Below are positions 28,749 through 47,961 of a stretch of DNA of 64,000 nucleotides, one piece after another. This DNA comes from an uncultured Dysosmobacter sp. (GTDB lineage: Bacteria; Bacillota; Clostridia; Oscillospirales; Oscillospiraceae): assembly GCF_947631165.1 (NCBI RefSeq), contig NZ_CANRKH010000003.1:62001-126000 (forward strand). The letters run 5' to 3'. The first letter of the stretch is position 1, and each line of letters begins with the position of its first letter. Below the pieces are notes generated by a model. It saw only the letters and a list, made by a program, of their open reading frames with translations. It was not told the DNA's origin and did not search any database. Both the position numbers and the translations under genes were made by a program.

Positions 28749-29516
28749 TCAAGTAAGTAAAAAGGCTTCCAATCGGCCTTTTTCTCCGGCTGTCACCCAC
28801 CCGGGCGGCTCCTTGTATCCCCTGGGTAACCTGTACTTAATGTAGCAATAGTTCCCAAACTCCGTCACCTTCTCTTCCCGCTCAATGATATGGCAGCCCA
28901 CCGGCACAGCCAGCATGGTATCATTGGGAACGTAGGCGGTTTTCACGATAGGCTTCTTCATGTTCCTGCTTGCGGTCCACATTTGCGCCCCCACGGGCCG
29001 CCCGGTCACGCTTTCCTTTGTCACATATTCCGCCAGTGTCTCATAACCGAATTTCCCGACATACTCCAAGTCCACAATATCCCCAAACGGCCACAAGCTA
29101 CGTATGATCTCTATGTCCTCCCCGTTGGAACTCACCACCAAATGATGATGCAGGCGGGCCTCCCCGTGCTTTTCTTCCGTGGTGTATATGTACTTCAACT
29201 CCTGGCCTCTGGCCTTTCGGTGCTCCCGAAACAGCTTCAGAAAATGCCGCACATTTTTGACCGCTGCGGCCCGGTTGGCTGGTAGATCAGTGTCACGGTA
29301 TGTCAATGTAATAAAGAGGTCCCGTCCGGTGAAATTCGCCGCCAGCAGCATTTCCAAGCGTCCACGGGCCGTCTTGTCGTTCATTGCCTTTTGCGCGGCG
29401 GAGGTCATGCGGGACTTCTCCGCCCTGGCTCTCTTGCCGTCCTGCGGCTCCGGAGCCGTATATATGATGGTTTTCACGATTGGTCCGGCTATGATGGTCT
29501 TTTTCCGTTTTGCCAT
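28749..29516 (-). CDS. Rolling-circle replication initiator (HUH endonuclease)
   Basis: The 255-aa protein contains the three Rep motifs: motif 1 LFITLTYRD (about residue 66), the HUH metal site LHHHLVV (about residue 120) and a tyrosine motif YETLAEYVTKE (about residue 160). Such proteins nick one strand at an origin and start rolling-circle replication. In an integrated element it would copy the excised circle. No relaxase or coupling protein accompanies it. The start follows a GGGGG site. Confidence 0.75.
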   Translation of the reverse strand: MAKRKKTIIAGPIVKTIIYTAPEPQDGKRARAEKSRMTSAAQKAMNDKTARGRLEMLLAANFTGRDLFITLTYRDTDLPANRAAAVKNVRHFLKLFREHRKARGQELKYIYTTEEKHGEARLHHHLVVSSNGEDIEIIRSLWPFGDIVDLEYVGKFGYETLAEYVTKESVTGRPVGAQMWTASRNMKKPIVKTAYVPNDTMLAVPVGCHIIEREEKVTEFGNYCYIKYRLPRGYKEPPGWVTAGEKGRLEAFLLT

Positions 29517-44317: not shown

Positions 44318-44353
44318 AAAAAAGGGAACGGTGGACGCTTATCCATCGTTCCC
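44318..44353 (-). terminator. Terminator overlapping the end of the reverse transcriptase gene
   Basis: GGGAACGATGGA and TCCACCGTTCCC pair (one mismatch) on the minus strand, followed by six T residues. The RT stop codon lies inside the hairpin. It would end the DGR transcript before the lysis genes. Confidence 0.8.
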
Positions 44354-45517
44354 ATTATTTTTATCGCTGTTTCGCCGGAGGACAAACCAGCCCTCCGTCC
44401 ACTCGGTATCACTGTATTCCCCAAAGATGGCCTTGCGCAGCTGGTAGCTGTCGCAGTGGGACAGGAGGCCAAGATAGGAATTGACCGTCATTTGCGCCCG
44501 CTCCAGCGTAATCTCCCCGTCCGCATACAGCTGTTGGATCTTCTTCAGCCGCTTTTTCATCCGCAGGGCGGTGGACTTCTTCAACCTTATGTGGTCCGGG
44601 AACACCCGGTACTGGCAGAAGTCTATCCCCTGGTTTATGGGCTGGATGAAGGATTTTTTGGGGTTCAGCTCCAGCTTCAGCCGGTCCTCCATGAACTCTT
44701 CAATCCGTTGGCGCCACTCTACAAGCTGATCTTTGCTGTCGGACAGGATCACGATATCATCCATGTACCGGACGTAGTAGTGGATGCGCAGCGTCCGCTT
44801 GGCAAAGTGGTCTACCTCGTTTTGGTTCACGTTCGCCAGCATCTGATTAAGCAGGCTCCCGACCGCCAGCCCCTTGTCCTCCAGCATTTCCTCCGGGGAC
44901 ACGTCCCCCACGCCTTTTCCCGGAGGAAAGCCGAATTTCTCCCCGGGGGCGTTGACGAACAGATCCATAAGCCACATAAGCCACGGGTCATATCCGCACT
45001 TCCGGCCTACTAAATCAAGGGACACTTGGTGATCTATCCTGTAAAAATATTTGCTGGTGTCCAGCTTTTCCAGATAAAAGCGCCGGCGGAGGCGGCCATT
45101 TTCATCCCGCCCCGCGCTTTTCTCTGCCCGCCCGGCCTGCTGCATGAAGTAGAATAGCCGCTGGGCCGCCGCGTCGGAGCCGCGGCCCTTGATGCAGGCG
45201 TAGGAATCCTCAATGTAACTTCGGACAAAACCAGGGTTGATGATCTGATACACGGCCCATTGTACCACGCGGTGGATAAAGGCCTGCCACATGATAAGCC
45301 TCTCCACCGGATCATGAATAACGCGCCTGAAATATCGTCCTGGCACATAGGTTTGGTCGATTAACCCTTCCTGTATCCAGTGGAGGTAATCTTCCAGATT
45401 AGCGGAAAACTCCAGCACTTCATCCCGAAAGCGTTTGTTTCTCCGGGCGTGAAGGTAGGCCTTATACAGATTGTCGTAATCCGTGACCTGCTCCTTGATG
45501 TGCTTGATGGTTTTCAT
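44339..45517 (-). CDS. Diversity-generating retroelement reverse transcriptase
   Basis: The 392-aa protein has the retroelement RT core. VGSLLNQ (residues 219-225) is the DGR form of motif 4, where retroviral and group II enzymes have QGxxxSP. The catalytic YMDD is at 251-254 (YYVRYMDDIVILSD), and a thumb region (about 300-360) follows. There is no maturase or nuclease domain. The enzyme copies the template repeat RNA with adenine-specific errors, and the cDNA replaces the variable repeat of the target gene. The ATG follows GGAG by six bases. Avd, two templates and a target lie directly upstream. Confidence 0.95.
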   Translation of the reverse strand: MKTIKHIKEQVTDYDNLYKAYLHARRNKRFRDEVLEFSANLEDYLHWIQEGLIDQTYVPGRYFRRVIHDPVERLIMWQAFIHRVVQWAVYQIINPGFVRSYIEDSYACIKGRGSDAAAQRLFYFMQQAGRAEKSAGRDENGRLRRRFYLEKLDTSKYFYRIDHQVSLDLVGRKCGYDPWLMWLMDLFVNAPGEKFGFPPGKGVGDVSPEEMLEDKGLAVGSLLNQMLANVNQNEVDHFAKRTLRIHYYVRYMDDIVILSDSKDQLVEWRQRIEEFMEDRLKLELNPKKSFIQPINQGIDFCQYRVFPDHIRLKKSTALRMKKRLKKIQQLYADGEITLERAQMTVNSYLGLLSHCDSYQLRKAIFGEYSDTEWTEGWFVLRRNSDKNNGNDG

Positions 45518-45697
45518 GTCCGACTCCGTAAAAAAGTTCGTGTGTCACGGCTCTCGCCCGGCCTGCGCCGGACTACTGGCGGCTTCCACGAGGTTTTTGT
45601 TTTTTGCCGCTGGAATGGTCTGCATGGGGGACAGCCCCCTTTATCCCCTCCGCACTGAAACAAAGCCCTTGAGCTTTGAGTATCTGGCCGCGAGGGT
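45518..45697 (-). ncRNA. Spacer of template cassette A (DGR RNA 3' region)
   Basis: The 180 bases between template A and the RT start have no gene. In DGR RNAs this spacer is structured and helps prime cDNA. Blocks such as CCCCTTTATCCCCTC and CAAAGCCCTTGAGCT recur in the region at about 45840-46000 beside template B, so the whole cassette is duplicated. Confidence 0.7.
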
Positions 45698-45812
45698 AAA
45701 GCGGCGCGGAAACCGACATTCTGATTGGAGATCAGCCGGGTGTTGTTCAAATTGAGCGCGAACACACCAGCGCGAGAAGTTTCATTCCAATTGCCGCCGC
45801 GCAAAGGCAGCC
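45698..45812 (-). repeat. Template repeat A (TR-A)
   Basis: The 115-bp sequence aligns without gaps to the variable repeat at 46835-46949. There are nine differences. In every one the template has T on the plus strand (A on the coding strand): AAT to CAT, AAT to TAT, GAA to GAT, AAC to GAC, AAC to CAC, ATC to CTC, AAT to ACT and AAT to TCT (two changes). About 20 adenines are available in the template. This marks it as the template used to diversify the target. Confidence 0.95.
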
Positions 45813-45839
45813 CAGGGCCGCCCCCAGTTTGCCGGGAGA

Positions 45840-46112
45840 TTCATGTGTGACGGTGCTCACCCGGTTTCCCGGATTACTCACGGCCTCCATGAAGATTTTG
45901 TTTTTTTGCAGACAGTTCCGTTGGCAGGGAGGCAGGCCCCTTTATCCCCTCTGCTCTGAAACAAAGCCCTTGAGCTCTGAATATCTGGCTGGGAGGGTAG
46001 AGCGGCGCGGAAACCGACATTGGTATTGGAGGCCACCCGGCTGTTGTTCAGATTGAGCGCGAACACACCAGCGCCGGCACCATTATTCCAATTGCCGCCG
46101 CGCAAAGGCAGC
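45840..46112 (-). repeat. Second template cassette with template repeat B (TR-B)
   Basis: TR-B (46001-46112) is homologous to TR-A, and its downstream spacer (about 45840-46000) is homologous to that of TR-A; the cassette period is about 302 bp. TR-B is rich in AAT/AAC codons (N-W-N-N, N-L-N-N, N-T-N). It differs from both TR-A and the variable repeat at G and C positions too. It is therefore not a mutated product of TR-A and is not the parent of the present variable repeat. It may serve another target gene. Confidence 0.85.
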
Positions 46113-46135
46113 TATGGCCTGTCCCCCATAGGTAT

Positions 46136-46663
46136 TTACTTTTTCCCTTTTTCCTTGCGCTGGCATTTGTAGCACAGCGCTCTTCCGAAGTGTTTCATGG
46201 AATATTGGTATGCTTTTTCTGGCATCTCTGCGGAGCAGTCCGCGCAGTACCGCTTTTCAGCGTCTGGGCCGGGGTCCGGCATCTCCTGGGACTTGATCCA
46301 GCCGCCCACCATCTTGCCAACCTCAACTGCCATTCCGGACCACACTTCGTATTTTTTTGGCGGTAGATACTGAAGGTCATACGCGATACGCAGGTAGACC
46401 TTCAGCGAGGCCACTTCCACGTCTAAATCCCGAAGGGTGGTACGCTTGGTGTATTTCTTGTTGGCGGTGATGGTCAGCCGCATAATTTGATCCAGACACC
46501 GTTTGATATCTTGGGCCAAACTGAATTTTTGGGACCGGGGGAATTGTTCCAGTGCAGGATACCCATAAAGGATCATGTCATAAATTCGCTGTTGAATCTG
46601 CAAGTCTTTTTTCTTGATGTCCGTTTCCTGCTGATCCTCTTGAAGCTCCTGGTCCTCGTCCAT
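46136..46663 (-). CDS. avd: DGR accessory variability determinant (Avd) with zinc-ribbon-like tail
   Basis: The 175-aa protein contains the Avd four-helix region (IYDMILYGYPALEQFPRSQK, RLTITANKKYTKRTTLRDLD, YLPPKKYEVWSGMAVEVGK). Avd binds the RT and template RNA. After about residue 125 a tail carries CADC and CYKC (C140, C143, C164, C167), a probable zinc site absent from the shorter Bordetella phage protein. The ATG at 46663 follows AAAGGGGG. It lies between the target gene and the templates, the usual DGR order. Confidence 0.9.
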   Translation of the reverse strand: MDEDQELQEDQQETDIKKKDLQIQQRIYDMILYGYPALEQFPRSQKFSLAQDIKRCLDQIMRLTITANKKYTKRTTLRDLDVEVASLKVYLRIAYDLQYLPPKKYEVWSGMAVEVGKMVGGWIKSQEMPDPGPDAEKRYCADCSAEMPEKAYQYSMKHFGRALCYKCQRKEKGKK

Positions 46664-46749
46664 ATCGTTCCCCCTTTTGTGTCTCAATCTCCGTCGATTG
46701 TATCACAACCGGGCCGGATACGCTACCCCCGATTTTCAAATTTTGCGCG

Positions 46750-46798
46750 ACCCCGCCGGGGCAAAGCCCCGGCGGGGTGAACCGTCGCTACCGCGACG
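46750..46798 (-). promoter_or_regulatory. Hairpins downstream of the variable repeat
   Basis: A perfect 13-bp stem with a three-base loop (46750-46778; ACCCCGCCGGGGC and its complement) and a six-bp stem with a four-base loop (46783-46798; CGTCGC/GCGACG) lie 37-85 bases past the end of the variable repeat. DGR targets often need a hairpin or cruciform just after the repeat for efficient homing. Termination of the target transcript is the other possibility. Confidence 0.6.
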
Positions 46799-46821
46799 AA
46801 AAACAGATTACGAAAAACAGA

Positions 46822-47961
46822 TTACAGATTTACAAAAGCGGCGCGGAAACCGACAGACTGAGTGGAGAGCAGCCGGGTGTGGTCCAAATTGAGCGCGAAC
46901 ACACCAGCGCGAGAAGTATCATACCAATGGCCGCCGCGCAAAGGCAGCCGTTCCCCGTAGTTACGACACCAGAACCAATCACCGTTAAGTGCATCGGCGG
47001 TGGATTCAACGGGGTACACACCGAGGATTTTGGCGATATCAGGAACGGTGGTAATACTCGCGTTTTTCCCAATGGTGCCGAAGGCCCGGTTGTTCGATGC
47101 GTAATAAGGGTTGGTGCTGGAATCGCCGGTATAGAAGGGGTGCTCCCGTTTGGTGTTGAGCTCTACGTCATTGGCATACTGATGATCCGTCGTTTGGGCG
47201 TCCCCTTCGGTGGGGCTGTCGTAATACAGCGTCCCCTCTCCGGTTGCGGGTTCGACCAAAGAACCATCCTCGGCCTTGATAGCTTTCCATGCCTCAGAAG
47301 TGTCGCTCATATCGGGATTGGTGGCCGCGTCGTTATCCTTGACAACCTGAATCTGCCCCTCCTTCACCCGGAGTCCAGACACCCACTCCCACACATTGCC
47401 GCACAGGTCGTAGATACCCGCCGGCGTATGGTCGTGCGCCCAGGTAGCAGGTCCGGAGCCGGTCAGCGTCCGCCCGATACGCTTTACAGCCGAGTCCATA
47501 TAGGTATAGCTGGCGATACCGTGTTCATGCTGGTCTGTAAAATCGCGGCCGAAATTGCAGTTGCCGTGGGGGATGGTGCCATGCTTCTTGCACCAAAAGG
47601 CCAGGGCCATCCACTCCGGATTGCTCATAAGGTGCCATCCCTTACCCTTGGCCTTGCAATAGGAAAGCGCCTGATCGTAAGTGACCAGAGCGCGCGGGTC
47701 ACGGCCGGGGAGGCTGTACGCCCGCTCTCCCACAACGATGTTTTGATACTTGGAGATGTAGACTTCATCAACTTCCTTGCCGTCCACAATGAAGGCCGGG
47801 AATACGTCCGTCTCGGCGCCTTTGTATTCCGGAAATACGTCTTTGATATAGAATTTCGGAACACGCACCATAATAGACGGCATTCCTACATCATCCAGAA
47901 GGACCGTGTTATTGGGGAGGGCCGACTCAACGGCCAATTTCATTGTGTCAAAGTAGTTCAT
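46822..47961 (-). CDS. DGR target: C-type-lectin (formylglycine-generating-enzyme-like) phage adhesin
   Basis: The 379-aa protein has an N-terminal phage-attachment part and a formylglycine-generating-enzyme/C-type-lectin-fold domain (about 100-379) with GIYDLCGNVWEWVSG. The final 38 residues (from PLRGGHW to the GFRAAF end) are encoded by the variable repeat. Eight residues there differ from the template-encoded ones. It follows the tail-fibre genes, so it is probably the receptor-binding tip displayed by the phage. GGAGG precedes the ATG. Diversification would alter host recognition. Confidence 0.92.
   Translation of the reverse strand: MNYFDTMKLAVESALPNNTVLLDDVGMPSIMVRVPKFYIKDVFPEYKGAETDVFPAFIVDGKEVDEVYISKYQNIVVGERAYSLPGRDPRALVTYDQALSYCKAKGKGWHLMSNPEWMALAFWCKKHGTIPHGNCNFGRDFTDQHEHGIASYTYMDSAVKRIGRTLTGSGPATWAHDHTPAGIYDLCGNVWEWVSGLRVKEGQIQVVKDNDAATNPDMSDTSEAWKAIKAEDGSLVEPATGEGTLYYDSPTEGDAQTTDHQYANDVELNTKREHPFYTGDSSTNPYYASNNRAFGTIGKNASITTVPDIAKILGVYPVESTADALNGDWFWCRNYGERLPLRGGHWYDTSRAGVFALNLDHTRLLSTQSVGFRAAFVNL
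46835..46949 (-). repeat. Variable repeat (VR)
   Basis: Aligned to TR-A it has nine substitutions, all at template adenines, and no indels. The GC-rich invariant end (46835-46853, about AAAGCGGCGCGG plus GAAACCGACA) corresponds to the initiation-of-mutagenic-homing region. The gene stop codon comes just after the repeat. Confidence 0.95.

What the first reader, a model, noticed from the sequence alone, without database searches (positions are those of the whole stretch)
44339..47961. Complete phage DGR with an adenine-only template-to-variable-repeat signature
Template A (45698-45812) and the variable repeat (46835-46949) align over 115 bp with no gaps and nine differences. Every difference is at a coding-strand adenine of the template. 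Eight codons of a phage adhesin change (N to H, Y, D, D-or-H, T, S; E to D; I to L). This indicates that mutagenic retrohoming has occurred in the lineage. The target is the last tail-tip gene, so host range is the probable trait under diversification.
Basis: partly seen in the sequence, partly recalled or inferred. Interest (0 to 1): 0.85.

Follow-up and report, generated by a model that had tools for sequence, protein, structure and literature searches.

The report
Phage mutator with swappable templates
A prophage carries a known kind of gene-scrambling element, but with two stored templates in a row instead of one, and in several relatives the scrambled end of the tail protein is pieced together from two or three stored templates.

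Summary
TR-A and the VR differ at 9 of 115 positions, all at template adenines, beside an intact RT gene, avd and a lectin-type target gene in a prophage: a diversity-generating retroelement (DGR).

The larger point is a second complete template, TR-B. Each template is followed by a copy of the Rfam RT-14 RNA (just below the curated cut-off).

Relatives show a family of template-array DGRs: 13 loci with 2-4 tandem templates, 12 of them in one RT clade, while 98 tallied relatives have one template. The VR is readable in 10 array loci. In 4, the window included, it matches one unit; in 4 it is a mosaic of two or three units with adenine-only changes inside each segment (one exception in L006); 2 are explained only in part. 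Other loci's arrays fit far worse: at least 10 non-adenine mismatches in 88 pairings, against 0-1 for the own array in 8 of 10.

So templates can be chosen and recombined as well as mutated. This is a new variant of a known kind. Use of TR-B in the window itself is inferred, not shown.

The parts
44339..45517 (-). reverse transcriptase gene (392 aa, YMDD, motif VGSLLNQ)
   Evidence: open frame; RVT_1 44 bits, PHROG RT 378 bits
45539..45700 (-). RT-14-like RNA behind TR-A (DGR spacer position)
   Evidence: Rfam RF02921, 43.4 bits, E 0.00093, below gathering score 48.1; same place above that score in many relatives
45698..45812 (-). template repeat A (RT-proximal unit), donor of the present VR
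   Evidence: 9 differences to VR, all at A; 0 non-A mismatches
45847..46002 (-). RT-14-like RNA behind TR-B
   Evidence: Rfam RF02921, 41.8 bits, E 0.0018, below gathering score 48.1
45999..46113 (-). template repeat B, second full template; not the source of the present VR
   Evidence: 23 differences to VR, 10 at A; 17 differences to TR-A; 8 Asn codons, no stop
46136..46663 (-). avd gene (175 aa), bAvd domain plus C-terminal CxxC...CxxC tail
   Evidence: PF22296 108 bits, NF033474 117 bits above cut-off; tail matched by phrog_13782
46751..46777 (.). GC-rich inverted repeat downstream of the VR and target stop codon; possible counterpart of the BPP-1 hairpin/cruciform
   Evidence: read by eye in the sequence; no tool tested it
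46835..46949 (-). variable repeat, at the 3' end of the target gene
46822..47961 (-). target gene (379 aa), FGE-type C-type-lectin protein
   Evidence: FGE-sulfatase, phrog_2889 435 bits, PDB 5vf4 E 4e-72 over residues 5-377

Best explanation
This is a prophage DGR of a template-array type. A tandem row of template units (2 here, up to 4 in relatives) lies between avd and the RT gene. A unit is a template repeat, in most arrays followed by its own RT-14 spacer RNA, the likely RT/Avd loading and priming element. Each template has three conserved, nearly adenine-free cores (5', middle, 3') that frame two variable modules. The RT copies template RNA with errors at adenines and the cDNA replaces the VR at the 3' end of the lectin-type tail gene. 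Because the units share the cores, a VR can be rewritten by any unit, or by pieces of two or three units joined at or near a core, either in one pass (RT or cDNA changes unit) or by successive partial rewritings. The element can thereby change the fixed scaffold, the set of mutable positions and, where units differ, module length (25 or 28 nt). Shown: the two units and their RNA matches, the A-only relation of VR to TR-A, and donor choice and mosaics in relatives. Inferred: that TR-B works, how units are switched, and the benefit to the phage.
For: TR-A to VR 9 of 9 changes at A. Duplicated unit with RT-14 behind each template. 13 array loci among the relatives. Donor analysis of the 10 array loci with a readable VR: one unit, 0 non-A mismatches, in window (unit 2 of 2), L077 (2 of 4), L176 (2 of 4), L019 (3 of 4, exact copy); mosaics L016 5>0 and L152 10>0 with one switch, L006 7>1 with one, L153 11>2>0 with two; null simulations 0 of 5000 in each of these four. 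Foreign arrays: 88 pairings, minimum 10, median 20. L153 and L176 have arrays 97.6% identical over 595 bp but different donors. Array loci cluster in the RT tree.
Against: No direct sign that TR-B was ever used in the window. L004 and L081 VRs are not explained by their own arrays (minimum 6 and 7 non-A mismatches with up to 3 switches). L006 keeps 1 non-A mismatch. L019's VR is an exact copy of one unit with no A change, so it is no evidence of mutagenic use. Within the array clade L013, L080 and L020 show one unit; the tree needs 6 changes of state with my labels, and L081 lies outside the clade. Window RT-14 matches are below the gathering score.
Confidence: 0.85

Rival explanations
1. For the window alone: an ordinary one-template DGR; TR-B is an unused tandem duplication and only RT-proximal TR-A is copied.
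For: The present VR is wholly explained by TR-A; no VR trace of TR-B was found in the genome.
Against: TR-B keeps reading frame, 8 Asn codons and an RT-14 match nearly as good as TR-A's. In relatives units other than the RT-proximal one are donors: L077 and L176 unit 2 of 4, L016 unit 1 of 2, L006 unit 2 of 3, L152 unit 3 of 4.
Confidence: 0.2
2. Mechanism A: mosaics arise in one pass. The RT starts at the RT-proximal spacer and jumps between units at the shared cores, or a long cDNA anneals to the VR through cores of different units.
For: L016, L006 and L152 have the 3' module from the RT-proximal unit and the 5' module from the unit just upstream. In L152, L153 and L176 only the last unit has an RT-14 match although inner units are donors.
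Against: L153 runs u3>u1>u2 (5' to 3'), which one upstream jump cannot give.
Confidence: 0.45
3. Mechanism B: mosaics arise by successive ordinary homings from different units, each replacing only the 3' part of the VR.
For: In BPP-1 cDNA integration starts at the 3' end and the 5' join only needs TR/VR homology (PMC3240598, passages). It can give any order, that of L153 included.
Against: Does not by itself explain how inner units without an own RT-14 match are copied in L152, L153, L176.
Confidence: 0.4
4. Mosaics come from plain DNA recombination between VR and units, with no role for the RT.
For: L019 holds a 112-bp exact copy of its VR in the array; L005 and L015 look like VR-array deletions without avd.
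Against: In the four mosaics every segment differs from its donor unit at adenines only, apart from one position in L006. In a reconstituted BPP-1 DGR, TR-VR recombination without active RT was rare (PMC12875486, passages).
Confidence: 0.12
5. Arrays are assembly artefacts of repeated sequence.
For: L014 has an N gap at the VR, L005 and L015 show doubtful joins; L018 and L079 end inside the array.
Against: 13 separate records show arrays, units differ strongly in their modules and keep frame, and array loci cluster in the RT tree.
Confidence: 0.04

Closest known systems
Bordetella phage BPP-1 DGR (mtd-avd-TR-brt)
   Same: Gene order target-avd-TR-RT, Avd, A-specific TR to VR change, C-terminal lectin-type target, spacer between TR and RT
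   Different: BPP-1 has one TR (recalled and as described in PMC3240598 and PMC12875486, passages); here two complete TR+RT-14 units, and mosaic VRs in relatives
Thermus aquaticus prophage DGR, variable protein TaqVP (PDB 5vf4)
   Same: Target homologous over its length; same order of parts in the paper's Fig. 1 legend (PMC6328139, passages)
   Different: One TR described there
Zeta crAss-like phages Lera and ct1yV3 with TR1-TR3 and VR1-VR3 (PMC12386605, passages); multi-TR DGRs counted in PMC6642488 (passages)
   Same: More than one TR for one RT
   Different: Described there as several TR-VR pairs, or several VRs; here several tandem TRs serve one VR and mosaics occur
Rfam RT-14 RNA (RF02921)
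   Same: Matches stand directly behind template units, in the place of the DGR spacer
   Different: Catalogued as an sRNA without stated function in the Rfam line shown; I found no paper in the held library that links it to DGR templates
Silent-cassette antigenic variation (for instance pilin or VSG gene conversion)
   Same: One expressed site rewritten from several silent copies, giving mosaics (recalled; VSG mosaics seen as a title)
   Different: Here copying shows the adenine signature of an error-prone RT; works like it, is not a member

Membership tests
Diversity-generating retroelement (DGR) | Reverse transcriptase of DGR type beside the repeats | tested here: met
   RVT_1, PHROG RT 378 bits; profile match to chain 8ub7, E 1.2e-36, named only 'Reverse transcriptase' in the output (that it is the BPP-1 RT is recalled). 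Domain motif is VGSLLNQ, not the GxxxSQ of most DGR RTs (typical, not defining)
Diversity-generating retroelement (DGR) | TR and VR that differ at template adenines | tested here: met
   9 of 9 at A, p 2.4e-8
Diversity-generating retroelement (DGR) | VR at the 3' end of a target gene with a ligand-binding scaffold (C-type lectin or similar) | tested here: met
   VR 46835-46949 in target 46822-47961; 5vf4 E 4e-72. By sequence only; structure prediction did not run
Diversity-generating retroelement (DGR) | Accessory protein (Avd or other) | tested here: met
   NF033474 117.3 bits against cut-off 80
Diversity-generating retroelement (DGR) | IMH at the VR end, IMH* at the TR end, hairpin behind the VR | tested here: inconclusive
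   Identity stops just behind the 3' core; inverted repeat 46751-46777 seen by eye only
Diversity-generating retroelement (DGR) | Active mutagenic retrohoming | not testable with these tools
   No reads or expression data
Rfam RT-14 RNA (RF02921) | Score at or above the gathering score (48.1 bits) | tested here: inconclusive
   Window copies 43.4 and 41.8 bits over the full model; the same place in L006, L014, L016, L019, L077, L081, L152, L153 and L176 scores 48.6 to 79.0

The most novel reading that the evidence does not exclude
The array is a rewritable library. Template units are themselves overwritten by mutated cDNA or by the VR, so the phage keeps earlier binding-site versions as adenine-poor units and later recalls or recombines them: hypermutation, cassette shuffling and heritable storage in one retroelement. 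Hints: L019 holds an exact 112-bp copy of its VR in the array; one unit of L014, three of L019 and one of L176 have no Asn codon; the L015 unit differs from the L005/L014 unit at two A positions by the same two changes as the L005 VR; the last unit of L077 differs from that of L079 partly by N>Y and N>H. L014, L005 and L015 may be assembly faults.
Probability: 0.2. Interest if true: 0.88.

Novelty: new variant of a known kind. Interest (0 to 1): 0.72.

Why it matters
A classical DGR changes only the positions that its one template marks with adenines, on one scaffold of one length. A row of exchangeable templates lifts those limits: scaffold residues, the choice of variable positions and, where units differ, module length can change by unit choice, and modules can be combined. 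It is a phage parallel to combining gene segments with hypermutation. It also offers natural experiments on open questions of DGR mechanism: whether the RT changes template, where cDNA starts and ends, what keeps homing directed to the VR, and what the RT-14 RNA does.

Tried and rejected
TR-B as template of a second VR elsewhere: rejected, the assembly held has only TR-B, TR-A and the VR. Arrays as chance or as one bad assembly: rejected (13 records). Modules diverging faster than spacers, as a sign of selection on templates: not claimed; 34% against 25% over 18 unit pairs in 7 loci, with several pairs equal or reversed. 'Write-back' of VRs into arrays: left open, since the L014 VR is mostly N and the L005/L015 joins may be assembly faults. 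A further template elsewhere in the L004 record: not found, 4 matches only, the VR and its three units. L034 and L037 (one template, 10 and 12 non-A differences) looked at by eye, not explained. More array loci by an exact TR-flank pattern: one contig, already known. Genome sampling gave one new array locus, L077. Plasmid and phage records hold no RT of 60% identity or more to the queries given (P0001; L176 and L077 RTs, phages only). Structure prediction never started: machine busy. Ten literature searches listed no paper on tandem templates for one VR or on mosaic VRs; lists were capped at 8-20 rows and the library lacks most subscription papers.
Full report
Check of the observation. On the coding (minus) strand the order is target gene with VR, avd, TR-B, TR-A, RT. 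TR-A and VR align over 115 nt without gaps with 9 differences, all at template A; the chance of that is 2.4e-8. The proteins match RVT_1, bAvd / DivGenRetAVD and FGE-sulfatase and PHROG families for RT and Avd. The target is related over its length to PDB 5vf4, the T. aquaticus DGR variable protein (PMC6328139, passages). An integrase, a repressor-like HTH protein, a tape measure, baseplate proteins and a capsid protein lie in the window, so I take it for a prophage. The assembly has 3.16 Mb in 95 contigs. G046, of the same genus, has a contig of the same length and match as the record titled uncultured Oscillibacter, so the host is probably Oscillibacter-like.

What was missed. A second template, TR-B, lies 301 bp upstream of TR-A within a duplicated unit. 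It differs from the VR at 23 positions, 10 of them template A, so it is not the source of the present VR. Rfam's RT-14 RNA matches behind each template with similar scores, both below the gathering score. RT-14 also stands behind the single template of two more distant loci, L045 and L047, of 14 such loci scanned at the gathering score. It holds the place of the spacer that in BPP-1 recruits RT-Avd and primes cDNA (PMC12875486, passages). Twenty-four unit RNAs aligned give a consensus fold in which 16 of 28 pairs have changes on both sides (no shuffle control was run).

Survey of relatives. Searches with RT queries (several lists capped at 80 or sampled) gave 160 loci with an RT match after leaving out 16 duplicate or short stretches, 128 distinct at the RT start, 105 with at least 1200 nt upstream, 102 of these with a repeat pair. 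The window is not in these counts and L014 was merged with L005. The script's own array flag named L004, L005, L015, L016, L019, L028, L152, L153, L176; I do not count L005, L015 and L028, where the VR lies next to a single template, and it misses longer arrays. By reading I count 13 array loci: the window (2 units), L004 (3), L006 (3), L014 (3), L016 (2), L018 (2 whole and the RNA of a third at the contig edge), L019 (4), L077 = L078 (4), L079 (2 whole and the RNA of a third), L081 (3), L152 (4), L153 (3 whole), L176 (4). In a careful RT tree of 62 rows the array loci then known lie in one clade of 15 rows (100/99). In a quick tree of 57 rows with the later ones they lie in a clade of 18 rows (SH-aLRT 98) with L081 outside; that clade also holds L013, L020, L080, L005 and L015 with one visible unit and two cut-off loci, L014 is not in it as a row, and my labels need at least 6 changes.

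Unit anatomy. A unit has a 5' core, a module of 25 or 28 nt, a middle core, a second module and a 3' core; the cores are free of adenine but for the middle core of one L019 unit. The units found by these patterns read without stops in the target's frame around a GVF motif, although they lie outside genes. RT-14 matches stand behind each unit in L077 (4), L006 (3), L081 (3), L016 (2) and the window (2); behind two of three in L004 and L014, whose first unit has a short spacer; behind two of four in L019; and only behind the last unit in L152, L153 and L176.

Who donates to the VR. In 10 array loci the VR can be read (L014's is mostly N; L018 and L079 are cut). Counting only mismatches not at a template A, and allowing the donor to change along the VR: four VRs match one unit with 0 such mismatches (window unit 2 of 2, L077 unit 2 of 4, L176 unit 2 of 4, L019 unit 3 of 4, the last an exact copy without A changes). 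Four are mosaics: L016 falls from 5 to 0 with one switch, L006 from 7 to 1 with one, L152 from 10 to 0 with one, L153 from 11 to 2 to 0 with two, using all three units. Best single donor plus the same number of random non-A changes reached the observed fit in 0 of 5000 simulations in each of the four, and in 0 of 20001 in another run for L016 and L006. The switch of L006, L016 and L152 and the first of L153 can lie at the middle core; L153's second lies inside the second module. L004 (10, 10, 7, 6 for 0-3 switches) and L081 (9, 9, 7, 7) are explained only in the first module. L004's second module fits a unit of L005/L014 with 0 non-A mismatches that is absent from the L004 record.

Controls. 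With up to two switches, each VR offered the arrays of other loci gives a minimum of 10 and a median of 20 over 88 pairings, against 0 or 1 for the own array in 8 of 10. The two L153/L176 pairings are left out of the 88 because these arrays are 97.6% identical over 595 bp; they gave 5 and 0. One of these two phages has a three-unit mosaic, the other a one-unit copy. One-template relatives behave classically: 488 of 527 VR-TR differences at A in 36 loci (tallied by hand; L073, RT 25% identical, left out) and 763 of 802 in 62 further loci. Six of these 98 have 4 or more non-A differences (L034, L037, L094, L110, L119, L127; only the first two were looked at).

How it most likely works. Template RNA is bound through its spacer and copied with errors at adenines; the cDNA replaces the VR through the shared cores. 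Any unit can be donor and the VR can end as a mosaic. Whether RT or cDNA changes unit in one pass, or successive homings each replace the 3' part, is open. The 3' module from the RT-proximal unit with the 5' module from the unit upstream (L016, L006, L152), and donors without their own RT-14 match, favour switching within one array RNA; the order in L153 needs more than one event. For the window, the last full rewriting came from TR-A; TR-B is a second scaffold, probably usable by analogy.

Known and new. It meets the DGR features that could be tested. DGRs with more than one TR have been reported (PMC6642488, PMC12386605, passages), there with several TR-VR pairs or VRs. Ten searches listed no report of tandem template units serving one VR or of mosaic VRs. 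Roux et al. 2021 (PMC8144416) was checked by term search only. Wu et al. 2018 and Weinberg et al. 2017 are not held, so prior mention cannot be excluded.

Limits. No reads, no expression data, no structure model. Short-read assemblies can fail at repeats; the claim does not rest on the doubtful joins in L005, L014 and L015.

Noticed in passing
46136-46663: The Avd protein has a C-terminal CxxC...CxxC tail beyond the bAvd domain, matched by phrog_13782; avd alignments of L152, L153, L176, L019 and L077 run into it, that of L081 stops before it.
   Followed up: partly
44339-45517: The RT has VGSLLNQ, invariant in the 9 RTs of A1, where most DGR RTs have GxxxSQ (PMC12386605, passage); L006 and L021 have VGSLSSQ.
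   Followed up: partly
45539-45700 and 45847-46002: The Rfam RT-14 RNA seems to be the DGR spacer RNA of this RT group; L045 and L047 with one template have it too.
   Followed up: partly
L005 3601-4163; L015 5428-5993: Target joined directly to the spacer of an inner unit, avd missing, L015 RT with an in-frame stop: VR-array deletion or assembly fault.
   Followed up: partly
L014 4258-4433: An N gap covers most of the VR in an assembly titled as strain G3, which may reflect VR variation in the culture.
   Followed up: no
L062 and L063: One template and two near-identical 1.76-kb target copies in tandem, both with VRs.
   Followed up: no
L034 509-1215; L037 2775-3505: One-template DGRs with 10 and 12 non-A differences, clustered in L034 in the 3' half; perhaps lost or changed templates.
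   Followed up: partly
28749-29516: REP_ORF2-G2P replication-associated protein (PF23343) outside the DGR, left of the repressor and integrase genes.
   Followed up: no
L015 11087-11171: Twister-sister ribozyme match, 82.3 bits, about 4 kb downstream of the DGR.
   Followed up: no
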